A DNA stretch of 44,145 nt from NCBI GenBank assembly GCA_030681265.1, contig JAUXXD010000078.1:1-44145 (forward strand). The letters run 5' to 3'. This document shows, piece by piece, positions 4,222 through 26,888 of this stretch. Position numbers and translations under genes: made by a program. Source of the stretch: Candidatus Didemnitutus sp. GTDB taxonomy: Bacteria > Verrucomicrobiota > Verrucomicrobiia > Opitutales > Opitutaceae. Position 1 is the first letter of the stretch. The number at the start of each line of letters is the position of its first letter. The notes beneath the pieces were generated by a model that had not been told where the DNA came from, made no database searches, and was given only the letters and a program-made list of their open reading frames with translations.

Positions 4222-6081
4222 TCAAGCGAGGGCGGAAAGCCGATGAGGGTGAGAGAACGCGGGCGGCGGCGCTAACTCGGTGAGCGGAGCCGAACCGGAA
4301 GAAGTCCAATCGCCATCACCGAGAAAATCGGGTTGCGCCCGAAAACGATGATGCTGCGACGAAGATTGACCTTGGGAAAATGAGTGCCCGTTGCCGGCGT
4401 TGTTCCCGGAGGAATTCGCCGTTGCCACAAACGGCTCGGCAAACCGCAGCGTCGAGTCGGGGCGCCCTGCTACCGCGCGCATTTCATGCGTCAGCGCAGC
4501 GCGCAACTCCGGCGAATCTGTGCGAAATTCCGTGCGCACTTCCCCGTCGCGGAGCGTGACGCGCACGTGGAGATCTTCTTCGCCAAACTTGAATTGCAAC
4601 TGCACACTCGGCACCGGCTGCATGCGTGACGCCGCTTGCGCTTCGACGACTGTCGTCACCGTTTGCACCGCGCGTTGCGCGACGAGGCGCGCCGCCTCAG
4701 CAGTCGCGGTCGTGCCGCCAATCGGCTCGACCAATGCGGCCACCGGCTGACCCGTAAACGGGAAGTCGAGGAGAGCATGCGCTGGGGCAAACATAGTCGG
4801 AACCGAAAAAGCACTGGCGGTGCCAACCAACAGCTTCCCCTTTCCAACCCTCGTAGTGTCAGTGTTTAGAAAATGTTTTTCTGACGTCGATTTAGCGACA
4901 ACACTCGTTTGGCCGGCGAGCAACGCAGCAGCGGCAATTTTTTCCGGTGCCGCGCTGGCCGTTGCGAGCCTGTCCGCCGACGCATTCGGCTCAACGCTTG
5001 TCATCGGCTTGGGGCCATTCGCCCGGATCGTCACACCGTTGGGCAACTCCACCGCTGCTGACTGGAGCGCGAGTGTCGGCATCTCGGTTGCGCGCGGCAA
5101 CGACGCAGCGACCGCGGGAGACCGAGGAATCTGCCCGGACGGCGCCTCGAAAAATTTGTTTGCTGCGGCCGACGTCTCTGCCGGCACCGTTGCCGCACGA
5201 ATCGGCGATGAAGCCACCATAGAAGCAGTGGGAAGTTGCCCGGATTGCGCCAAATGCACGGTTGCCCCTGAGTCACTGATCGCTGGCGCATTGGCCCGCA
5301 CTGCAGTGGCAATCTTCATGATTACCGGAGAGCGCAAAGTATTCTCGGCGATAGCCAGTTCCGTGGTGAGTGCGGTTGTCGCGGCGCGGAGTTGGGCCTC
5401 GACTCGTTGCGTGAGCGGCGTGCCCTGCGGCCGTTGCACCAACACCGCGTCGGTCGCAGTGGTGGGTGTTTCGGCGAGTGAATCCGCGGGCGCGATAATC
5501 GGCGACTCAACGCCGGGCCACCGCAGTGAACGGGCCATGCCATTCGGCAGCTCTAGTGACAATTGCAACGAATCCGCCATCACCTTGCCGGTCGGTGCCG
5601 ACCCTGTCGCCGCAACCGGCAACACTGTGGGCATCCACAGCGGCAGCATGAGCGCGAGCACCGCTTCGACGACTTGGCGCGTGGGTTCCTCCGTGGGCAA
5701 CGCCGGTTCGTCTGTCGCAAACTCTGCCTCCAGCAGCGGCATGGCGGGAGCGGAAACACTCGCGTGGCACGTCCGAACAGATCTCGTGATCGTGGTCTGC
5801 GCTAACTCGCCCACGTCGGGCGATGTCGGTTGGCTGCTGTTTTCGATGCGTGCCGCGGGGAGTGCAAAGGGTGGGGAAATGCCCGGAGCCACTGGTGCTT
5901 CGGCACCGCTCGAGTGCGGTCGCAACAGAGCGGCAAAAACCATCGGGCGCGGCATAGCACCCATCGCTGCTCCGGCCATTTGGCCGCTAATGCCCAGCCC
6001 GCCCAGCGCGTCACGTTCAGTGGCAAGGCCTCCGGTGGGCGGGGCGGTGTCGGAGCATTGCGGAGCAGGGAAGGTCGTCAT
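4222..6081 (-). CDS. fliK: FliK, flagellar hook-length control protein
   Basis: FliK (619 aa) measures hook length and switches export specificity. Most of the protein is low-complexity Ala/Pro/Ser/Thr-rich sequence, as expected of the secreted ruler region. A folded C-terminal Flg_hook domain lies near residues 500-570 (QLQFKFGEEDLHVRVTLRDG). A His/Ser/Asn-rich tail follows. The ATG at 6081 is preferred over 6117 because GGAGGG lies about 10 bases upstream. It is longer than the E. coli protein (about 405 aa). Its position immediately before flgD supports the call. A long open frame on the opposite strand here reflects GC-rich composition and is not a gene. Confidence 0.88.
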   Translation of the reverse strand: MTTFPAPQCSDTAPPTGGLATERDALGGLGISGQMAGAAMGAMPRPMVFAALLRPHSSGAEAPVAPGISPPFALPAARIENSSQPTSPDVGELAQTTITRSVRTCHASVSAPAMPLLEAEFATDEPALPTEEPTRQVVEAVLALMLPLWMPTVLPVAATGSAPTGKVMADSLQLSLELPNGMARSLRWPGVESPIIAPADSLAETPTTATDAVLVQRPQGTPLTQRVEAQLRAATTALTTELAIAENTLRSPVIMKIATAVRANAPAISDSGATVHLAQSGQLPTASMVASSPIRAATVPAETSAAANKFFEAPSGQIPRSPAVAASLPRATEMPTLALQSAAVELPNGVTIRANGPKPMTSVEPNASADRLATASAAPEKIAAAALLAGQTSVVAKSTSEKHFLNTDTTRVGKGKLLVGTASAFSVPTMFAPAHALLDFPFTGQPVAALVEPIGGTTATAEAARLVAQRAVQTVTTVVEAQAASRMQPVPSVQLQFKFGEEDLHVRVTLRDGEVRTEFRTDSPELRAALTHEMRAVAGRPDSTLRFAEPFVATANSSGNNAGNGHSFSQGQSSSQHHRFRAQPDFLGDGDWTSSGSAPLTELAPPPAFSHPHRLSALA

Positions 6082-6141
6082 GGATTGACTTCCCTCCGTG
6101 GAAAACAGCGACGCCATCCATGGCGTGCGGGTGAAAGAGAA

Positions 6142-9359: not shown

Positions 9360-10376
9360 TTAGGCGACGAGTGCTTGCGAATCGGAATCGAGCGAGATCT
9401 GGCCTTCTTCTTCGAGTCGGCGGACCGCTTGGATGATGACGTCTTGCGCGGCCTCGACATCCTTGAGGCGCACCGGGCCGAGCAATTCGATTTCTTCCTT
9501 GAGACTTTCTGCGGCGCGTTTCGAGAGGCCGGCGTAAATCTTGTCGCGCAATAGTTCGCTCGCCGACTTCATCGAAATCGCCAGATTGCCCGAATCGACT
9601 TCGCGCAACACGCGCTGCAAATCGGACGATTGCAGGCGGAGAAGATCCTCGAAGCTGAAAAGTTTCTTGCGCACGGCGGCACCGAGGGTGGCATTGCGCT
9701 CTTCGATGCGGGCCAAAAGCGTCTTCGACATTTCTTTTTCCAACGTGTTGAGCAATCCGGCGACAGCGCGCACGCCGCCGCTGTTGTGCAAAACCGGCCG
9801 GGCCTTCGTGTCGAAATGTTTGCCGAGCGAGCGGACGATTTTGCCCACGAGTTCCACCGGCGTGGACTCAATCGTGCCCAGGCGCTCGATGACATCCTCG
9901 CGCAATTCCGGGCTGAGTAAGGCGAAGATTTCGCCCGCCTTGGCCGGTTCCAGATAGGAAAGGACAAAGGAAATTGTCTGCGGCTGCTCTTGCTTGATCA
10001 GATTGAAAATCTGGCGGCCTTCCATTTCCGCGATTTCATTCATCACGACGTTGGAATTGGCCACCGGGCCGACGCGATTGATGATGGCGGAGGCTTTGTA
10101 ATTACCTTTGCAAATCTCCAGCGCACGTTGGGCGTAATTGATGCCGCCGAGGGCCATGCCGGCACTAGTCGCAACGAGGGATCCAAATTCTTCCAACGCC
10201 TGCTTTTGCGTCGACTCAGGAATCATCGGGTAATTCGTCATCTCGCGACAAAGACTTTCGATTTCGGTATCGTCGAAATGCTTGAACATTTCCGCAGCCG
10301 ATTCTGGGCCGATGCAGATCAAGAAAACGGCGAGCTTTTGCTGGCGGGTAAGTCGGGTAAAATCGATGTCGGGCAT
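9360..10376 (-). CDS. fliG: FliG, flagellar motor switch protein
   Basis: FliG (338 aa) bridges the MS ring to the C-ring and receives torque from the stator. The N-terminal FliF-binding domain begins LTRQQKLAVFLICIGPESAAE. The middle domain carries EQPQ at about residues 130-133 where many FliG proteins have EHPQ. The C-terminal domain includes FSFEDLLRLQSSDLQRVLRE and SKRAAESLKEEIELLGPVRL, with the charged torque helix. Length is standard (about 331 aa). It lies between two small ORFs, downstream of fliF. Confidence 0.96.
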   Translation of the reverse strand: MPDIDFTRLTRQQKLAVFLICIGPESAAEMFKHFDDTEIESLCREMTNYPMIPESTQKQALEEFGSLVATSAGMALGGINYAQRALEICKGNYKASAIINRVGPVANSNVVMNEIAEMEGRQIFNLIKQEQPQTISFVLSYLEPAKAGEIFALLSPELREDVIERLGTIESTPVELVGKIVRSLGKHFDTKARPVLHNSGGVRAVAGLLNTLEKEMSKTLLARIEERNATLGAAVRKKLFSFEDLLRLQSSDLQRVLREVDSGNLAISMKSASELLRDKIYAGLSKRAAESLKEEIELLGPVRLKDVEAAQDVIIQAVRRLEEEGQISLDSDSQALVA

Positions 10377-10388
10377 AACGAGCAGCGG

Positions 10389-10547
10389 TTATGGAGTGGT
10401 CGGATGCAGCCGGAGGGTTCGGGTTGCTCCAACGCGCGGTGCCGGCTGGCGAACGGCCGGAGACCGCGCGAGCACGGCGCCTCCGGCCTGGATGCGGCGG
10501 TTCATCCGGTGCGCGGTTGCGAAAGTGGGAGCGCGACGCGTTTTCAT
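10389..10547 (-). CDS. Small basic ORF between fliF and fliG (52 aa, unknown)
   Basis: A 52-codon frame starts 4 bases after the fliF stop (TGA TCTC ATG) and ends 12 bases before the fliG ATG. The product is Arg/Ala/Pro-rich (MKTRRAPTFATAHRMNRRIQ at the N-terminus), strongly basic, and has no recognised domain. The 4-base gap copies the spacing of the other small ORF after fliG. That supports a translated spacer gene, but its composition is also what GC-rich non-coding DNA would give. Function unknown. Confidence 0.38.
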   Translation of the reverse strand: MKTRRAPTFATAHRMNRRIQAGGAVLARSPAVRQPAPRVGATRTLRLHPTTP

Positions 10548-10551
10548 GAGA

Positions 10552-12144
10552 TCAGTTTTTCGTAGCGGGGTTGGCGGCCCAATCCCGCAACGCCGCCCCG
10601 ATGTTGGCCGGGCGCTGGCGAATGAGTTGGTTGAGCATATCGGGCGTGATGGCTCCACCACTCTGGATCGACCGCGCGGCGACATCCGGTGGCATATTAA
10701 AAACCTCCATCGGCACCGGCTCGGGCTTTTGTTTGGAGAGTAAGCGGAGAAAAATCAGGAGCACCATGCCGGCCCCGAGAACAGCAGCCCAACGCGCAGC
10801 GACTTCGACCCAACCCTGGATGCGCGTCTCGCTCTGGATATCTTCGACCGTCTGCGAAATCGGCGTGATCGAGAACGGCATCTCCTGCAACGTGACGATG
10901 GAATCGAGTTCCTGGCCGGGAGCGACTTTGAGACCGAGCGCGTTGACCACCACTTGGCGGAGGCTGGTGAGTTCTTCCGGAGTGCGGCGCTGCTCCGTGG
11001 GCTGGGTGCCCGGAGGCGAACCAGCTGGCACGGCAATGCTGCGCGGCGCGATCAAGACCGACGCGCTGACATGTTTAATCGTGCCGGGGTTGCGCGTGAT
11101 GTTGGTCGTCGTGCGATTGATTTCGTAGGAAGTGGTGCGGTTTTTACGATTTTGCTCGTTCGAAGTCGTGGGCCGCACTCCGGCTTCGCCCGTGGCTTTT
11201 TCGGGCACGTTGGCACTGACGCCGGTGGCACCGCCGCCACGTAGTTCAGTCGCGTTGGAGCTGTCTTCGGTGACGACTTGGGAGCGGACGACTTGGCCGT
11301 CGGGATCGTAGCGTTCCTGGGATTGCGTCATCGCTTCCGTGTCGATCTCGGCGGAGACGCGCACGACGGCGTTGCTCGGGCCGATGACGAGCGCGAGCAT
11401 GCTTTCGACTTTGCGCGCGAGGTAATCCTCGACCTGTTGCTTGTAGCGCATCTGCGAGGACGCGTTGCCGAGTGTGGGGTCTTGCTTGAGTTCTTCAGAG
11501 AGGACGCGGCCGCGATTATCGACGACGGCGACTTGATCGGGTGCGAGGCCTTGGACGGCGTTGGCGACGAGGTGGCGGATGGCGTTGACGCCTTCGCTAT
11601 CGAGCCGGGCTCCGCCCATATCGACAAAGACAGAAGCCGTGGAGCGCACCCCTTGCTCGGTGAGGAGGAGGCGGTTCTCCGGTTGCACGATCATCACGCG
11701 AGCGGCGCGCACGCCTTGTAGTTGCGTAATGGTGCGAGCGAGTTCGCCTTGGAGGGCGCGGAGGTAATTGGTGCGTTGCACGAAGTCGGACAGGCCGAAC
11801 TGGCCCTTGTCGAAAATTTCAAATCCGACGCCGTCGCCGCTGGGCAGACCTTTGCTGGCGAGATCCATGCGGAGCTTGTGCACGCGATCGGTGGGCACTT
11901 GCACGGCGCTGCCGCCGGCCATGACTTGGTAAGGAATGTTCTGCGTTTGCAGGTGGCTGATGATCGCCGAGGAATCTTTGTCGCCAAGGCGCGCGTAGAG
12001 CAGTTGGTAATCGGGACGACGGGCCCAGAAGACGACCGCCACCATACCGGCAATCACCACCACGGTGGCGATGACGAGCGTGACCCGTTGGTTGAGGCCA
12101 AGCTGTTGCCAGAGGGCGAGCAGGGAATCGGCGAAGTTTTTCAT
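10552..12144 (-). CDS. fliF: FliF, flagellar MS-ring protein
   Basis: FliF (530 aa) forms the membrane-embedded MS ring. There is a first membrane helix at about residues 21-40, then the YscJ/FliF ring-building domain (DYQLLYARLGDKDSSAIISH; LARTITQLQGVRAARVMIVQ). A variable Thr/Asn/Arg-rich periplasmic insert (about 300-350) follows, then a second membrane helix (about 451-469). The short cytoplasmic tail ends with the FliG-binding region (IGAALRDWAANPATKN). Length agrees with the family (about 550 aa). It follows fliE and precedes fliG apart from the small ORF. Confidence 0.96.
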   Translation of the reverse strand: MKNFADSLLALWQQLGLNQRVTLVIATVVVIAGMVAVVFWARRPDYQLLYARLGDKDSSAIISHLQTQNIPYQVMAGGSAVQVPTDRVHKLRMDLASKGLPSGDGVGFEIFDKGQFGLSDFVQRTNYLRALQGELARTITQLQGVRAARVMIVQPENRLLLTEQGVRSTASVFVDMGGARLDSEGVNAIRHLVANAVQGLAPDQVAVVDNRGRVLSEELKQDPTLGNASSQMRYKQQVEDYLARKVESMLALVIGPSNAVVRVSAEIDTEAMTQSQERYDPDGQVVRSQVVTEDSSNATELRGGGATGVSANVPEKATGEAGVRPTTSNEQNRKNRTTSYEINRTTTNITRNPGTIKHVSASVLIAPRSIAVPAGSPPGTQPTEQRRTPEELTSLRQVVVNALGLKVAPGQELDSIVTLQEMPFSITPISQTVEDIQSETRIQGWVEVAARWAAVLGAGMVLLIFLRLLSKQKPEPVPMEVFNMPPDVAARSIQSGGAITPDMLNQLIRQRPANIGAALRDWAANPATKN

Positions 12145-14456: not shown

Positions 14457-15563
14457 ATGCAACCGCGCCGCAAAATCCGCGTGCTGATTGTCGACGACTC
14501 CGCCGTCGTGCGGAAGCTCGCGAGCGAGGCGCTTTCGGTCGATCCGGATATCGAAGTCGTCGGCACGGCGGTCGATGCGTTCATGGCGCGTGACAAATTG
14601 CGGGAGTTGAATCCCGACGTGTTGACGCTGGATCTGGAAATGCCGCGCATGGATGGCCTCACCTTTCTTCGACTGTTGATGGAGCGGCGACCCATACCGG
14701 TCGTGGTCATGAGTTCGCTCACGGCGCGCGGTTCCGAGCACGCGCTCGAAGCACTGCGCCTCGGCGCAGTCGAAGTGATCGGTAAACCCAGCGGGGCCAA
14801 CTCCTTCGGCCAACTCGGTTCCGAGCTCATTGCCAAGGTGCGCATCGCGGCCACAGCGCGGATGCCTGCCCCCACCGTGCCCGGCACGCCCCCAACGGTT
14901 GCTCCGCGTCAAGCGACGAAACCCCCATTCGCTGCTCCCAGCACCAACTTCCATCCTCGCTCACTAATCCTGTTGGGCGCGTCCACCGGCGGCACGGAAG
15001 CACTGCGCGCGATGCTCACGCAATTGCCTGCGACCTTGCCACCCATCGCGATCGTGCAGCACATCCCCGCGACGTTCTCCAAGACCTTTGCCGCCCGCTT
15101 GGACTCACTTTGCCAACTCCACGTGCGCGAAGCCGTCGATGGCGAACGCCTGCAGCCCGGCCTCGCGCTCATCGCACCCGGCAATTTCCATCTCCTCGTG
15201 CAGTGGCGCAACGACCACTATCGCGTGCGCGTCGTCACTGGTCCACCCGTCTGGCACCAACGTCCCGCCGTCGATCTCCTGTTCCGCTCCGCTTCCGAAT
15301 GCGGCGCGGCTCCCTATACCACCGCCGGCGTGCTCACCGGCATGGGCAAAGACGGCGCCGAAGGTTTGCTCAAGCTCCGCGACCACGGCGCCACCACGTT
15401 TGCCCAAGACGAGGAATCTTGCGTTGTCTACGGCATGCCCCGAGCAGCGTGGGAGAACGGTGGCGCGCAAATACAAGTTCCCCTTCCGCGCATCGCGCCT
15501 TACCTTATCGCCCGTAGCGAAGTTCATCTTTCCTCAAACATCGAATCCGCCCTCCGCGGTTGA
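14457..15563 (+). CDS. cheB: CheB, chemotaxis response regulator / receptor methylesterase-deamidase
   Basis: CheB (368 aa) removes methyl groups from chemoreceptors when phosphorylated by CheA. The receiver domain shows Asp13-Asp14, phospho-acceptor Asp59 (LTLDLEMPRMDG) and Lys110. An Ala/Pro-rich linker (about 130-165) leads to the methylesterase domain with the catalytic triad Ser176 (LILLGASTGG), His202 (VQHIPATFS) and Asp299 (LTGMGKDGAEG). All key residues are intact. It is one base downstream of cheR and three upstream of the next regulator, indicating one transcript. Confidence 0.96.
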   Translation: MQPRRKIRVLIVDDSAVVRKLASEALSVDPDIEVVGTAVDAFMARDKLRELNPDVLTLDLEMPRMDGLTFLRLLMERRPIPVVVMSSLTARGSEHALEALRLGAVEVIGKPSGANSFGQLGSELIAKVRIAATARMPAPTVPGTPPTVAPRQATKPPFAAPSTNFHPRSLILLGASTGGTEALRAMLTQLPATLPPIAIVQHIPATFSKTFAARLDSLCQLHVREAVDGERLQPGLALIAPGNFHLLVQWRNDHYRVRVVTGPPVWHQRPAVDLLFRSASECGAAPYTTAGVLTGMGKDGAEGLLKLRDHGATTFAQDEESCVVYGMPRAAWENGGAQIQVPLPRIAPYLIARSEVHLSSNIESALRG

Positions 15564-21926: not shown

Positions 21927-22931
21927 CTACCCGCTCCAGCCCGCCCAGACGAACCACGCGTAGCTGACGAGCAACACCCCGCCTGCCCAACGCGGCAGTC
22001 CGCCGTAGAGCAATAAGAACCCGGCGTGCGCCACCACCGCACCGAGGATGAGCCACAAGCCCGTCATGAAGAACGGCGGCACCGCGACTGGGGTCAGCAC
22101 AGCGAGAATTCCCAAACACAGTGGAATGCAGATGTGTCCGTCGCCGACTTGCGAACTGTAGACAATGTCTGCCCGCCGCTTCCGGCCCCAATAGAGCGCG
22201 AGTAACGCATTCGGCAGCACCATCAGCCAACCACTGAGCCAACCCAAGTTGTCCACGCTGAGGAAGCCCGTCTTCTGCGCCGAAATCCACGCGACGAGCC
22301 AGTCGATGCTTTCGTAGAGCAACCACGCCGACAGTAGCACCAGCGCGATATCGACGTAGAACATCAGTCGATAGGAAATCTTTTGACGGACGTTGTGCTT
22401 GAGCACGTCAAACACTTGGAATGTTTGCCAAAAGAGAAATAGTCCGATCAGCAACAGTCCGTCGGTGCGTGTCAGTTGACCGTCCTCAGCCAGCAACCAA
22501 GTCGCGCCGGTGAAAAACAACACCGCCGTAATCGTCAGCATGAGGGAGAGCCGATCGATTTGCGCACCGACGTTGGCCGACGCAGTTTTGCCGCGCGCCT
22601 TGCCGCCGCCCGCGCCGCCGCCGGTGACTTGCAGCCCCCACAACACCGCGGGCAAACCAAGCAGCAAAGTGAGAGTGGTGACGTTGTTGACCAGACTGTT
22701 GGTCAACGCCTCGACCGGCGCGCCGCCCTGTCGCGTCAGAATAAAAACGAACAGCACGTTCCCGAGTCCCGAGCAGTAAGGCATCAGAATCGTGCCAAGT
22801 GCCGTGCCTTCCAGTCCGTGATCCAGCATCGCCTCCAGTCGCCACAGCATGAGCAGGGAGGCGACGAGGAAGAGGCACAGATAGACTCCCGGATCGGTCA
22901 GACCCAGGGATTCAATGAGCGGCGGCAACAC
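21927..22931 (-). CDS. Na+/Ca2+ exchanger-like membrane protein (CaCA superfamily)
   Basis: A 334-aa polytopic protein with about ten hydrophobic helices. The first half has a segment resembling the CaCA alpha-repeat (LTNSLVNNVTTLTLLLGLPA, preceded by GTALGTILMPYCSGLGN); the second half has MVLPNALLALYWGRKRRADI with SSQVGDG, resembling the second alpha-repeat. A Gly-rich linker (GGGAGGGKARGK) lies near residue 105. CaCA proteins exchange Ca2+ or other cations for Na+ or H+. The acidic and Asn residues are partly conserved, so ion specificity is open. The start is GTG; no strong ribosome binding site. The gene converges with the 138-aa gene. Confidence 0.7.
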   Translation of the reverse strand: MLPPLIESLGLTDPGVYLCLFLVASLLMLWRLEAMLDHGLEGTALGTILMPYCSGLGNVLFVFILTRQGGAPVEALTNSLVNNVTTLTLLLGLPAVLWGLQVTGGGAGGGKARGKTASANVGAQIDRLSLMLTITAVLFFTGATWLLAEDGQLTRTDGLLLIGLFLFWQTFQVFDVLKHNVRQKISYRLMFYVDIALVLLSAWLLYESIDWLVAWISAQKTGFLSVDNLGWLSGWLMVLPNALLALYWGRKRRADIVYSSQVGDGHICIPLCLGILAVLTPVAVPPFFMTGLWLILGAVVAHAGFLLLYGGLPRWAGGVLLVSYAWFVWAGWSG

Positions 22932-23167: not shown

Positions 23168-24568
23168 TTACTGCAAGCGCGCCGGGAGCCGTTGCAAACG
23201 CGCCGTGAGATCGCGGAACACTGCTTCCGTGTTCTGCTGCACAACACTTTCGCCGACGGTCAGCGTCTGACTGGGGGTGAAATCTCCAAGCACAGCGCAA
23301 TATTCGTTGCTCACCATAATGCCGATAAGTTCGCCCGTTTTCGCAAACATGAGGTCGCCCCGCTTCGGCGGGATTTCGCCAAAGAGGCGCGTGAGCAGTC
23401 GATTGTCCACGCGCACGTAGCTGGCATATTCCGCGTCGAGTCGCACCGGCGTCTCGCCATATTTTCCGTCGTCCGCGCGAATCAACACGACATCGGGAAA
23501 CTTAAACGGCTCCGCCGCGAGTCGATAAATCTTGGCCCCTAGTTGCGCTGCAAAGGCATCGTCAACCGGCACCACGAGCACGCGTGGATCGAGTTTGAGG
23601 AAACGAATCTCCTTCATCGGTGCGCTCACGGCACCAAAGGCGAGTCGTCCGGTGATTCTCTGGTAATTGAGTGGATTTTCCCGCGTGAGACTGAACGGCG
23701 TATCGCTCACGTGCATCAACGCGTAGGTCTGGCGCCCGTCCGAAACTAGGATCGTCTGCGCATCGCGCTCGCGAAACGTCGGGCTGAAGAGACCGGGGCG
23801 TTGCGTGGAAACTTGCATTTGCACGCGGTTGGCGAGGAATTCGCCGAAGATGAGATTCGCGTTAACCGGACGGTGGTCACGCAACTCTTTCGTTAATTCC
23901 GTCGACCGTTCCGCGAGCTGGCCGACGCCTTGCGCCAGTTGCGTGGTTTGCTCCTGCACCTTGTAACGTTCCTGCCGCTCCACTTCGATTTGCGTGCGCG
24001 CCTGATCGAGATTCTGCCCGAGAAATTGTTTCTCCTGTTCGGCCACGCGCACCGCGACCGAAAGGTTTTCGATCTTCTGCCGCGCTTCGGTATTCTGGCG
24101 CTCCATGCGCGCGAGTTCGGCTTGCTGGCGCTCGGCTTCGGCGCGGCGTTCATCGAGCTCGCGTTGCATCTTCGCCAAGCGCTCCTTCGAGAGGAACGCC
24201 TCGTCACTCACCGCGGAATATTTCTTCTCCAGCTCCTTCACGTTCGAAGTCGTGGTCGCGAGTGCACCCTGTAATTGCGTGCGCTGTTGCTCGGCTTGGG
24301 AGAGCGCCTTTTCGCGCTCGGTGAGTGTGCTCTGCGTGTTGCCCAGTTGCGCGGCGAGTTGTTCGCGCGTGGTGCGTTCATCTTCGAGGGAAACGCGCAT
24401 CAACTCGACCATGTCGGCGTTGATCGCCGGCGACGCGGTGGATGAGGCCGTGGGCGGCGCCGCGGATTCGATGCCGGCGCGACTCGGCTCCGCCTTCTCC
24501 CAGCTCGTAAGCGCGAGAAGGTTGAGCAACAGAAAGTCGCACAGGATAAGGAGGAGCGTCTTGTTCAT
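23168..24568 (-). CDS. Membrane-anchored coiled-coil protein with degenerate trypsin-like C-terminal domain
   Basis: A 466-aa protein of unknown function. It has one N-terminal membrane helix (about residues 4-20, LLLILCDFLLLNLLAL) with Asp11 inside it, a Pro/Ala/Ser/Thr linker (30-50), a long charged coiled coil (about 52-230), and a C-terminal globular domain (235-466). The last contains GDLMFAKTGELIGIMVSNEY at 404-423, which looks like the Ser-region and following strand of trypsin-like proteases without GDSGG. Asp in a single N-terminal helix is a feature of MotB/ExbD-type proteins. It is 9 bp downstream of a polytopic partner and surely cotranscribed. A role as an energised membrane complex is inference. 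Confidence 0.7.
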   Translation of the reverse strand: MNKTLLLILCDFLLLNLLALTSWEKAEPSRAGIESAAPPTASSTASPAINADMVELMRVSLEDERTTREQLAAQLGNTQSTLTEREKALSQAEQQRTQLQGALATTTSNVKELEKKYSAVSDEAFLSKERLAKMQRELDERRAEAERQQAELARMERQNTEARQKIENLSVAVRVAEQEKQFLGQNLDQARTQIEVERQERYKVQEQTTQLAQGVGQLAERSTELTKELRDHRPVNANLIFGEFLANRVQMQVSTQRPGLFSPTFRERDAQTILVSDGRQTYALMHVSDTPFSLTRENPLNYQRITGRLAFGAVSAPMKEIRFLKLDPRVLVVPVDDAFAAQLGAKIYRLAAEPFKFPDVVLIRADDGKYGETPVRLDAEYASYVRVDNRLLTRLFGEIPPKRGDLMFAKTGELIGIMVSNEYCAVLGDFTPSQTLTVGESVVQQNTEAVFRDLTARLQRLPARLQ

Positions 24569-24577
24569 GACGGCGGA

Positions 24578-26233
24578 TCAGCCAGCGGTGTTTGTGCCGT
24601 GCGATTCGAGGATGAGCTGCCGTTTATACGGACGCACGTGACGGATTTTCACCAACGCCACGCAGACGATACCGAAGAGATTCGACGAATACGCTGCGAG
24701 CAGGTTCGCCTCGATCACACCGAGCACCTGCAACACGAGCGCCGTCGCCGTGCCGGCGATGCCGATGTAGAGGCCGCCGTCGAAGAGATTCTCTTCGTTT
24801 TCCATCAGCTTGAGCTTGGTGAGGGTGGGCACCGGCTGACGGGAGACTTCGGCGATTTTCAGCAGACAGATGACATACATGCCGACCTGAATCAGCGCGA
24901 AGATGACGATGGAAAAGAGAGTGGAGTTGTCCATAGAGGGAGCCGTAGTTGAAGCGACAGGAGCAGAAGCGGCAGTCGTGCCGAGAATGGGAATGATCAA
25001 CCGAACCTGATACTCGGTCGCCGCCGCAGCTTTGAGCAGAAAGGGTTCGGAGAACACGAAGAAAATGAAAGTGAGAATGCCCGCCAACACCCCGCTGCCC
25101 ATCTTCGGGAATGCGCCGCGCAACGCGCGCTCGGCGGGTTGAAACAAACGGAGGTCAACTGAACGGAAGAGCAGAAACGCCCCGACGAGAAACGCCGCGT
25201 ATTTCAACCCGAGCGCGAGCGACGGATTCCGCAGCACGAAGCCGGCACCGAATTCAAACTCCGGGCCGACCGCCTGCGTGACCGGGGCTTGGCGCGCGAC
25301 GAGTTGCCGCACGGAGCCTTCGCCGAACGAGAGCGCCAGCTTGAGGTTTTCCGCGCCGGGTTTGCCGAAAGCGATCAGGTAGCGCGCAACCGCATCGGCC
25401 GACTTCGTCATCAGCGCCGCCGTGTAAATGACCGGCAAATGCTCGGGCGCGACGCGCGTGAGATGCGCGAATTGCGCGACAGTGGCGGGGTTGCTCGCCG
25501 TGCGCAACAGTTCGGACAATTGAATCCAGTTGAGTCGCTTTCCGAGCGACAGGATATCGAGATAGAAATCCTCCAGCGGCCCCATTTGACCTGTCACCAC
25601 TGCCGTTTCGGCGAGCGCGCGAATATCGCGTTGCAGCGACGCAGGAATGTTTTCGCGCTGCCACAGGTAAGCCGTAAGCAAAATCACCGCCTCCAACGGC
25701 TGGCCCCCGGGCTTATTCGCCGGCACGAAACGCTGCGTGGTCGTGAGCTCGGCGGTTTTGAGCAGGGCTTGCACGCCGGGGAGCCGCGAGACCTGCAAGT
25801 AGCGCTTGAGGTTGTCGCGCGAGCGCTGCGTCACGAGGAAGGTCAAGACCGGCGTCGATTCCGTCGGCAACGGCGTGCGCCGGTCCGCGAGCAGCGGTTC
25901 CAGTGCCACGTCCCACCCACCCCATGGAATCATTTCCGGATGCCGCCGCGCATAATCGCTAAAATCGCCCGTCAGCGCTGGGGCGTTGGGGTCTTCGATT
26001 GCCCGCGCCGCTTCCAACACGAGGGTCGCCGGACCGGGCTTGTCCAACGCGAGCATTTCGCGGGCGAGCACCGCCACCGTCGGTGTGCCGCGACCCGCTT
26101 CGCGCAACAGCGCGGGATTGAGCGACTTTACGTTGACCGGCAGCGTCCACGCCAGCGCGAGGAACAACCCGCCCACCAGCAAGCCACCGAGCCACAGGGC
26201 CGGCGGAACACTGGATTGGACTGGTTTCGACAT
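24578..26233 (-). CDS. Polytopic membrane protein, possible MotA/ExbB-like subunit
   Basis: A 551-aa protein of unknown function. It has an N-terminal membrane helix (about residues 12-30), a large helical extracytoplasmic domain (about 35-340), then about five membrane helices (near 346-360, 380-396, 435-457, 488-506, 512-530). The last two, GLYIGIAGTATALVLQVLGV and NLLAAYSSNLFGIVCVALVK, recall the GTV and Thr/Ser-rich helices of MotA/TolQ/ExbB proton channels; similarity is weak and judged by eye. The ATG at 26233 is chosen over an in-frame start at 26296. The coiled-coil partner follows 9 bp after the stop. It is divergent from peptide deformylase. Confidence 0.7.
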   Translation of the reverse strand: MSKPVQSSVPPALWLGGLLVGGLFLALAWTLPVNVKSLNPALLREAGRGTPTVAVLAREMLALDKPGPATLVLEAARAIEDPNAPALTGDFSDYARRHPEMIPWGGWDVALEPLLADRRTPLPTESTPVLTFLVTQRSRDNLKRYLQVSRLPGVQALLKTAELTTTQRFVPANKPGGQPLEAVILLTAYLWQRENIPASLQRDIRALAETAVVTGQMGPLEDFYLDILSLGKRLNWIQLSELLRTASNPATVAQFAHLTRVAPEHLPVIYTAALMTKSADAVARYLIAFGKPGAENLKLALSFGEGSVRQLVARQAPVTQAVGPEFEFGAGFVLRNPSLALGLKYAAFLVGAFLLFRSVDLRLFQPAERALRGAFPKMGSGVLAGILTFIFFVFSEPFLLKAAAATEYQVRLIIPILGTTAASAPVASTTAPSMDNSTLFSIVIFALIQVGMYVICLLKIAEVSRQPVPTLTKLKLMENEENLFDGGLYIGIAGTATALVLQVLGVIEANLLAAYSSNLFGIVCVALVKIRHVRPYKRQLILESHGTNTAG

Positions 26234-26321
26234 AGAAGAGAGCCTATCGCAGCCACGCCGAGCCGGAAACAATTTATTTGCCGGAATCTCGCGCACCCAA
26301 ATACGCTGCTCCCTACGACCT

Positions 26322-26888
26322 ATGCCGCCGCGAATTGTTCACTACAACGATCCTGTCCTCCGTAAAAAGGGCGCCAAGGTCACGAAGTTCGGCGCCGAGC
26401 TGCACGAACTCGCCAACCAGATGATCGACGCCATGTATGCCGCGCACGGCATCGGCCTCGCCGCACACCAGATCGGGCAGGCATTGCAGGTTTGCGTGGT
26501 GGATTTGCGCGAAACCGAAAGCGAGTTCGATTGGGAACTCGACGGAGCGCGCCCACCGCTCGATATCATCATGCCGCTGGTTGTCGCCAATCCCGTCGTC
26601 CTGGCTCATCCCGGCCCCGAACTTCCCTACGAGGAAGGGTGCCTGTCTTTTCCGAAAATCAACGGCGATGTCCTGCGCCCGGACGAGATTACGGTAAAGT
26701 TCCAAGACGAACACGGCACGCCGCACGTGATGCGCTGCAACGGCTTGTTATCGCGCTGCATCCAACACGAGGCCGATCACCTCAACGGCGTGCTCTTCAT
26801 CGACCGTATGGATGCCGCCACCCTCAAACGACTCGATCCGGACATAAAGGCGCTGAAAAAACGCACGCGCGAAGCCGCCAAACGCTGA
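26322..26888 (+). CDS. def: Peptide deformylase
   Basis: Def (188 aa) removes the N-formyl group from nascent proteins using a bound metal. All three motifs are intact: GIGLAAHQ (43-50), EGCLSFP (105-111, Cys107 a metal ligand) and HEADH (149-153, the two His ligands and catalytic Glu150). A short insert between motifs 1 and 2 (WELDGARPPL) is mildly unusual. The ATG at 26322 gives the canonical N-terminus (PRIVHYNDPVLRKKGAKV); the frame is open further upstream without meaning. The next gene follows after 2 bases, so they are cotranscribed. Confidence 0.96.
   Translation: MPPRIVHYNDPVLRKKGAKVTKFGAELHELANQMIDAMYAAHGIGLAAHQIGQALQVCVVDLRETESEFDWELDGARPPLDIIMPLVVANPVVLAHPGPELPYEEGCLSFPKINGDVLRPDEITVKFQDEHGTPHVMRCNGLLSRCIQHEADHLNGVLFIDRMDAATLKRLDPDIKALKKRTREAAKR

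What the first reader, a model, noticed from the sequence alone, without database searches (positions are those of the whole stretch)
23168..26233. Two-gene membrane module: possible MotA/ExbB-like plus coiled-coil MotB/ExbD-like partner
A polytopic protein (24578-26233) ends in two helices that resemble the MotA/TolQ/ExbB channel helices (GIAGT; AAYSSNLFGIVCVAL). 9 bp later, a single-helix protein (23168-24568) has Asp11 in its N-terminal helix, as MotB/ExbD proteins do. A long coiled coil and a C-terminal domain like trypsin without GDSGG follow. Channel plus anchored-coil architecture is also used by Zorya-type ZorA/ZorB and by motors. This pair has no recognisable named function and could be a new energised envelope complex.
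Basis: partly seen in the sequence, partly recalled or inferred. Interest (0 to 1): 0.72.

Follow-up and report, generated by a model that had tools for sequence, protein, structure and literature searches.

The report
Conserved motor-like membrane pair, function unknown
Two neighbouring genes, kept together in many bacteria of one phylum but missing from the protein-family catalogues searched, make a membrane protein and a partner with a never-changing acidic residue in its membrane anchor and a dead-protease head, which together look like an unrecognised ion-powered machine of the cell envelope.

Summary
A (24578-26233, minus strand, 551 aa, six predicted TM helices) and B (23168-24568, 466 aa: N-terminal helix, coiled coil, beta domain) lie 9 bp apart. 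Each occurs in 108 of 141 relatives, with further relatives in the class and phylum, where A can be only ~171-210 aa. Where the genes have separated, both are still present in 7 of 8 genomes seen. B's Asp is residue 11 in 152 of 152 homologues with a readable start. A's last two helices are its most conserved part. B's head is HtrA/Deg-like by fold without the GxSGG serine. The MotA/TolQ/ExbB link is weaker: no family-library match, no fold match; profile-profile alignments usually pick one register at E 4e-4 to 5e-3, prob 7-36%, with 0-1 of 200-250 shuffles as good, but one run gave E 0.05 and the first failed. In one family a Ser/Thr kinase gene follows B (9 of 9, 16 of 17 loci). Best reading: a divergent ion-driven transducer that works like ExbBD/MotAB; membership unproven.

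The parts
24578..26233 (-). Gene A: 551-aa polytopic membrane protein, six TM helices
   Evidence: homologue in 108 of 141 relatives
26144..26203 (-). A TM1 (res 11-30)
   Evidence: AF2 helix
25292..26116 (-). A all-helical domain (res 40-314), inferred periplasmic; absent from the ~171-210 aa forms
   Evidence: AF2, 10-residue blocks mostly at pLDDT 90+, down to 62 around 111-120; short forms
25145..25225 (-). A TM2 (res 337-363)
25049..25111 (-). A TM3 (res 375-395)
24839..24928 (-). A TM4 (res 436-465) with Q449 (Q 98, H 5 of 103)
24725..24778 (-). A TM5 (res 486-503): G491 103/103, T495 (T 97, S 6 of 103); preceded by D485 103/103; candidate pore helix
24587..24703 (-). A TM6 and its extension (res 511-549): Y515, G521, I522 103/103; S517 (S 100, A 2, T 1); position 518 T 55 / N 48; candidate pore helix
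24569..24577 (.). 9-bp gap between A stop and B start
23168..24568 (-). Gene B: 466-aa single-helix protein with coil and beta head
   Evidence: homologue in 108 of 141 relatives
24497..24562 (-). B N-terminal TM helix (res 3-24)
   Evidence: AF2
24536..24538 (-). B Asp11 codon; 152 of 152 homologues have Asp at this position
   Evidence: also 4 of 4 unlinked B genes; 20 and 7 further loci, where Asp11 was part of the filter
23876..24430 (-). B coiled coil (res 47-231)
   Evidence: AF2; coil-type hits only
23171..23869 (-). B HtrA/Deg-like (S1C) pseudoprotease head (res 234-466)
   Evidence: Foldseek, VIA; no catalytic-Ser motif

Best explanation
A and B form an ion-driven membrane transducer built on the 5:2 plan of ExbBD, TolQR, MotAB and ZorAB, in a branch not covered by the family libraries searched. 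Several copies of A (five by analogy; inferred) ring two B helices (inferred). B's invariant Asp11 (conservation shown) is loaded and unloaded with a proton or sodium ion against a ring of hydroxyl or amide side chains on A's last two helices (conservation at 495, 517 and 518 shown; ring and ion inferred). The resulting motion (inferred) passes through B's coil, about 28 nm if straight at 1.5 A per residue, to a head with the HtrA protease fold and no catalytic-serine motif (shown), which binds rather than cuts something in the envelope (inferred). In one family a Ser/Thr kinase encoded directly after B probably reads the state of the complex (gene order shown, coupling inferred).
For: B Asp is residue 11 in 152 of 152 homologues, 119 from the order, 13 class and 20 phylum, while 32 B proteins of the order average 29% column identity. 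A's C-terminal hairpin is its most conserved part: D485, G491, Y515, G521, I522 in 103 of 103, T/S at 495 and T/N at 518 in 103 of 103. Published structures put the partner's Asp against Thr145/Thr178 of TolQ and show Thr148/Thr181 of ExbB (passages of PMC12215075) and put it against a Ser/Thr ring in ZorAB and MotAB (passages of PMC11890865). hhalign aligns GL.GTV to GLLGTV and AYSSTLIGI to ALITTAAGL: cropped E 3.8e-4 (0 of 250 shuffles as good) and 2.1e-3 (1 of 250); uncropped E 0.0012 and 0.002-0.005 (1 of 200 shuffles). Own-genome MotA-like L005 against the ExbB hairpin gives E 2e-5, prob 77; four other regions of A give prob 0.03-1.7. A and B persist together where unlinked: G104, G123, G137 and G560-G563, four of the five genomes reached from loci without an adjacent B. 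Kinase directly after B on the same strand in family f70: 9 of 9 loci and 16 of 17.
Against: No Pfam or NCBIfam MotA/ExbB or MotB/ExbD match at E<=10. hhalign probabilities are low (7-36%); 103 cores against the cleaned MotA/ExbB set gave only E 0.05, prob 1, and the first uncropped runs failed, aligning another helix (prob 0.8-0.9). Single MotA/ExbB-type proteins against the A hairpin are mixed (prob 46 and 31 at best, 0.6-2.6 for two of four). The reverse rank test is weak (AUC 0.67-0.69, against 0.88-0.92 forwards), all scores are under 9 bits and a background ORF tops three of four lists. No solved ExbB/MotA chain was listed for the A model. A lacks the large cytoplasmic domain and the second conserved Pro at the equivalent place. 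B has almost no cytoplasmic tail. One genome (L225) has an interrupted A frame and no B. There is no evidence yet for ion flow, oligomer or motion.
Confidence: 0.57

Rival explanations
1. A static membrane signalling or scaffolding complex. Asp11 makes a structural polar contact between helices, no ion flows, and the HtrA-like head senses periplasmic ligands and signals across the membrane, in one family to the kinase.
For: B's closest structures include the S1C domain of RsgI9 (7sjy, VIA Z 12.1), part of a sensor protein (recalled). A kinase with an FGE-like domain follows B in family f70. The ExbB relation is only weakly supported.
Against: It leaves unexplained why Asp11 and A's GT / AY.S(T/N)..GI helix pair are near-invariant across the phylum, and why they mostly align in register with ion-conducting pore helices.
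Confidence: 0.25
2. A is a transporter or channel of another family, and B is its periplasmic adaptor or regulator.
For: A is polytopic; the best VIA row is the magnesium channel CtMrs2, Z 7.9.
Against: That Z is in the range the tool calls unspecific for helical models; no Pfam or NCBIfam match for the window A at E<=10; the ~171-210 aa minimal A has mostly four hydrophobic segments (15 of 17; one shows three, one five).
Confidence: 0.1
3. B is an active membrane-anchored HtrA/DegS-type protease and A is its membrane cofactor.
For: HtrA fold at Foldseek E 6.9e-6; DegS is also anchored by one helix (recalled).
Against: No GxSGG at the active-site loop; G.SG occurs in the last 160 residues of only 3 of 153 B sequences, at another place. 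Here the loop reads RGDLMF and in many relatives RGDLVFS.
Confidence: 0.03
4. B's N-terminus is a cleaved signal peptide or a lipoprotein signal (Cys10-Asp11 with Asp as a retention signal), so B is not held in the membrane by A.
For: Cys10 is frequent: 128 of 152 (109 of 119, 6 of 13, 13 of 20).
Against: Cys10 is lost in 24 of 152 while Asp11 never is; only nine residues precede it, and the residue before it is usually I, L, V or M rather than A, G or S; an Asp inside the hydrophobic stretch does not suit a signal peptide.
Confidence: 0.03

Closest known systems
ExbB-ExbD / TolQ-TolR
   Same: Two-gene unit; A-type protein ending in a G..GT helix and an A..(T/S)(T/N)..G helix; partner with one N-terminal helix bearing an essential-type Asp
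   Different: No Pfam relation; no large cytoplasmic domain between helices; no Pro at the TolQ/ExbB place in the last helix; partner has coil plus HtrA-like head instead of the ExbD/TolR domain; Asp only ten residues from the start
MotA-MotB
   Same: The minimal A has four TM segments with short loops in most copies; Asp in B's helix
   Different: No torque-generating cytoplasmic domain, no OmpA-like domain found; the genome has five PF01618 proteins elsewhere, one MotA-like by my reading (L005)
ZorA-ZorB (Zorya)
   Same: Motor-like pair carrying a long rod-like part
   Different: In Zorya the tail is cytoplasmic and made by ZorA (abstract passage of PMC11890865); here the coil is on B and predicted periplasmic; no PADLOC match for A and only a coil match of B to ZorA at E 1.1
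GldL-GldM
   Same: A 5:2 pair (passages of PMC9389320) with a long periplasmic partner (recalled)
   Different: Head fold differs: HtrA-like. No direct comparison made
HtrA/Deg (S1C) proteases; RsgI9 S1C domain
   Same: Fold of B's head
   Different: No catalytic-serine motif, no PDZ match, 185-residue coil between membrane helix and head

Membership tests
MotA/TolQ/ExbB (PF01618) | Match to the Pfam or NCBIfam model | tested here: not met
   Window A and ten homologues, short and long: no such match at E<=10
MotA/TolQ/ExbB (PF01618) | Two last pore helices related to TolQ/ExbB TM2-TM3 | tested here: inconclusive
   hhalign E 3.8e-4 to 5e-3 mostly in one register, 0-1 of 200-250 shuffles as good; but E 0.05 for 103 cores against the cleaned set and failed first runs; forward AUC 0.88-0.92, reverse 0.67-0.69
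MotA/TolQ/ExbB (PF01618) | Thr polar ring (TolQ T145/T178, ExbB T148/T181) | tested here: met
   Aligned positions 495 (T 97, S 6 of 103) and 518 (T 55, N 48 of 103); equivalence rests on the weak alignment; residue roles from PMC12215075 passages
MotA/TolQ/ExbB (PF01618) | Conserved Pro kinking both pore helices | tested here: not met
   First: P at 487 in 26 of 103, G in 77. Second: none nine residues after 518, where ExbB T181/P190 would put it; another Pro (window P535) lies 17 residues after 518 and is nearly invariant in alignment A6
MotA/TolQ/ExbB (PF01618) | Helical cytoplasmic domain before the last two helices | tested here: not met
   About 20 residues (466-485) with two short helices in the AF2 model
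MotA/TolQ/ExbB (PF01618) | Fold match to a solved ExbB/MotA/TolQ | tested here: inconclusive
   Whole-chain search only
5:2 ion-driven motors | Five A around two B, ion flow, rotation | not testable with these tools
   No multimer prediction offered
MotB/ExbD/TolR/ZorB partner | Single N-terminal helix with invariant Asp | tested here: met
   152 of 152
MotB/ExbD/TolR/ZorB partner | OmpA-like or ExbD/TolR-like periplasmic domain, or Pfam match | tested here: not met
   HtrA-like head; no such family listed
HtrA/Deg protease (S1C) | Chymotrypsin-like double-barrel fold | tested here: met
   Foldseek E 6.9e-6, prob 1.00; 50 VIA rows, some of them viral proteases, Z 10.9-12.7 over 151-186 residues, rmsd 3.3-5.1
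HtrA/Deg protease (S1C) | Catalytic Ser in GxSGG | tested here: not met
   G.SG in 3 of 153 within the last 160 residues, all at another place
Zorya | PADLOC ZorA/ZorB match | tested here: not met
   none for A; B only a coil match to ZorA, E 1.1, among the 25 of 38 rows shown
Zorya | ZorC/ZorD/ZorE companion genes | not tested
   Neighbours were clustered but not searched for these

The most novel reading that the evidence does not exclude
A deep, unnamed lineage of ion-driven 5:2 motors across much of the Verrucomicrobiota whose shaft ends in an HtrA-derived pseudoprotease, and which in one family is wired to a Ser/Thr kinase with a membrane helix: a motor used to power or read envelope signalling rather than transport, swimming or defence.
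Probability: 0.33. Interest if true: 0.82.

Novelty: new variant of a known kind. Interest (0 to 1): 0.62.

Why it matters
The known ion-driven envelope motors form a short list (flagellar stators, Ton, Tol, gliding/type 9, Agl, Zorya; from PMC9389320 passages and recall). If true, a pair that keeps the motor signature but has lost easy sequence relation, carries a pseudoprotease head and in one family sits next to a kinase gene would widen that list and suggest a new use, signalling. It would give a function to two uncharacterised proteins present in over a hundred genomes, and the ~171-210 aa form of A, smaller than TolQ or ExbB (sizes recalled), would be handy for structural work.

Tried and rejected
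Pfam, NCBIfam and PADLOC on the window A gave nothing and on B only weak coiled-coil-type matches. PDB sequence searches gave nothing below E 0.2. First uncropped hhalign runs failed; the MotA/ExbB set then held three doubtful ORFs, left out later of the profiles, though the 38 proteins ranked may still include such ORFs (one is L285). Even with the cleaned set one run gave E 0.05. Conserved third genes in Opitutales: a divergent peptide deformylase gene just upstream in 38 of 133 loci (loci of one genome can count twice), judged incidental. Lipobox/signal-peptide reading of Cys10-Asp11 rejected. Active protease rejected. Literature: the listings showed no paper on this pair; preprints and most subscription papers are not held.

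Rows dropped: in the Asp count G097_L091 (N-terminus not in the ORF) was left out, two first letters were set to M for numbering (G011, G109) and L254 was counted from an internal Met. 101 of 103 A cores and 32 of 35 MotA/ExbB proteins passed the cropping pattern. The script needed an ATG and so missed seven B genes that start with GTG (found). Structure alignments used 76 of 77 named A and 60 of 65 named B homologues, length-filtered.
Full report
What is there. Gene A (24578-26233, minus) codes for 551 aa and gene B (23168-24568, minus) for 466 aa, nine bases apart. The window A has no Pfam or NCBIfam match even at E<=10; B shows only weak coiled-coil-type matches. PDB sequence searches are empty below E 0.2.

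Conservation. Among 141 relatives (those listed are of the same genus, family or order), B is found in 108 and A in 108. Reading the two lists together, only G087 has A without B and only G097 B without A; the B hit in G073 is a weak coil match (E 6e-4) while its A has internal stops, and in G011 both genes are full of stops, so both decay together there. Of 80 named loci, 69 have B next to A: 62 (gaps -32 to +427 bases, 17 of them a 4-base overlap) and seven more starting with GTG. Three contigs end within 235 bases of A, three loci gave B but no full A, and five have about 8 kb after A and no B there.

Unlinked pairs. Four of those five genomes, three of them Cerasicoccus, have a full B elsewhere (E about 1e-147 or better), with Asp at residue 11 in 4 of 4. 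The fifth (L225) has an interrupted A frame and no B. In genus g64 (G104, G123, G137) the genes are also apart, on one contig or on two, and both kept. Retention without linkage supports a shared function.

Reach. A profile of A's last 122 columns hits 31 of 141 genomes of the class, 13 of them outside the order, and 76 of 194 of the phylum, 51 of them outside the class; a deeper profile hits 125 of 387, 79 outside the class. Named records are Opitutales, Puniceicoccaceae, Cerasicoccus, Coraliomargarita and similar Verrucomicrobiota; 362 stretches in GTDB r220 encode a relative, 80 of which were kept. One record titled Rhodospirillaceae (L164) is probably a mis-binned MAG. Other phyla were not searched.

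Minimal form. In several families of another class of the phylum A is only about 171-210 aa, with four hydrophobic segments in 15 of 17, and keeps the core '..LENADIFFDLPLY.GL.GTV.SFI......SRL.AYSSTL.GIIFSV.LR..' (consensus). In all 33 class- and phylum-level loci a B homologue follows at once, and in 20 of 20 further phylum loci too, 16 of them overlapping A by 4 bases (Asp11 was part of that filter). The window's form has in addition a helical domain (residues 40-314) and more TM helices.

B's helix. Asp is residue 11 in 152 of 152 homologues with a readable start: 119 of the order, 13 of the class, 20 of the phylum; position 12 is F in 148 and V in 4; Cys10 is common (128 of 152) but not invariant; K or R at position 3 in 118 of 119, 8 of 13 and 17 of 20, the class and phylum exceptions having it at position 2. 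With the mostly non-basic far flank this suggests N-in, head-out (inference; Opitutales often have Arg22).

B's head. The AF2 model (mean pLDDT 83; head blocks mostly 89-98 with dips to 83 and 62) matches HtrA/Deg proteases: Foldseek E 6.9e-6, prob 1.00, the top 19 all of that kind; VIA Z 12.7 (astrovirus protease 2w5e, 151 residues, rmsd 3.3), 12.1 (RsgI9 S1C, 7sjy, 173, 3.7), 11.5 (DegP, 1ky9, 175, 3.7). The serine motif is absent, so it is a pseudoprotease.

A's core. In 103 aligned cores D485, G491, Y515, G521 and I522 are invariant, position 495 is T or S in all, 518 is T or N in all, 517 is S in 100. Published work places the partner's Asp by Thr145/Thr178 of TolQ and shows Thr148/Thr181 of ExbB (PMC12215075, passages read), and describes the Asp against a Ser/Thr ring in ZorAB and MotAB (PMC11890865, passages read).

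Is A a MotA/ExbB relative? Tests were mixed. For: the profiles align in one register, cropped (E 3.8e-4 and 2.1e-3; 0 and 1 of 250 shuffles as good) and uncropped (E 0.0012; 0.002-0.005 with 1 of 200 shuffles). Calibration: own-genome MotA-like L005 against the ExbB hairpin E 2e-5, prob 77; other parts of A prob 0.03-1.7. Ranking: with the two A-core profiles, 38 MotA/ExbB hits outrank 224 and 249 multi-helix background ORFs with AUC 0.88 and 0.92. Against: no family-library match; probabilities of only 7-36%; E 0.05 for 103 cores against the cleaned set; failed first runs; reverse AUC only 0.67-0.69 and background ORFs on top of three of four lists; no structural match for the whole chain; missing cytoplasmic domain; no Pro at the TolQ/ExbB place. 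I therefore say it works like such a pair and do not file it in PF01618.

Kinase link. In family f70 a Ser/Thr kinase gene follows B on the same strand: 9 of 9 loci in the first set and 16 of 17 in the second. Elsewhere it is rare: 0 of 11 non-f70 phylum loci and 1 of 13 class loci (L260) in the first set, 0 of 3 in the second, with about 1.6-3.6 kb downstream to look in for the first set. Four f70 kinases scanned have a Pkinase and an FGE-sulfatase-like domain; six of nine f70 kinases, and L260, show one TM segment at the threshold used.

Mechanism proposed. Shown: gene pairing, invariant Asp, near-invariant hydroxyl/amide positions, fold of the head, loss of the catalytic motif, kinase gene order in f70. 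Inferred: ring of A around two B helices, ion binding at Asp11, motion through the coil, ligand binding by the head, signalling to the kinase.

Literature. Listings and abstract starts were seen (no paper listed), and passages of PMC9389320, PMC12215075, PMC12505986 and PMC11890865. PMC12505986 describes non-flagellar relatives with varied extra domains, including very large periplasmic ones, so added domains alone would not be surprising; an HtrA-like head was not mentioned in the passages seen.

Noticed in passing
L228-L234, L237, L245 and 16 of the 17 f70 loci in L291-L310: Three-gene order A - B - Ser/Thr kinase with an FGE-sulfatase-like domain (domain scanned in four), in one family (f70); also once in a class-level genome (L260)
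   Followed up: partly
L177, L182, L194, L196 (B at L341-L344): A and B unlinked but both kept in Cerasicoccus and a relative
   Followed up: yes
L225: Record with an interrupted A frame and no B found in its genome
   Followed up: partly
window 9360-12144: Flagellar genes FliG and FliF, with CheB at 14457-15563; A-B lies about 9 kb or more away
   Followed up: no
window 4222-6117: 631-aa minus-strand ORF near the flagellar genes with no Pfam match at E<=0.001
   Followed up: no
window 21927-22931: Na/Ca-exchanger-like gene (PF01699, E 1.3e-8) downstream of B on the same strand; not among the recurrent neighbours printed
   Followed up: partly
L105 (G011): A same-genus genome (74% complete) with both A and B decayed by many stops
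   Followed up: no
L164: Record titled Rhodospirillaceae carries an Opitutales-like A-B pair; probably a mis-binned or mislabelled MAG
   Followed up: no
38 of 133 loci, e.g. L067; in the window an ORF within 25986-26888 plus strand looks the same: Peptide deformylase-like gene divergent from A in many loci
   Followed up: partly
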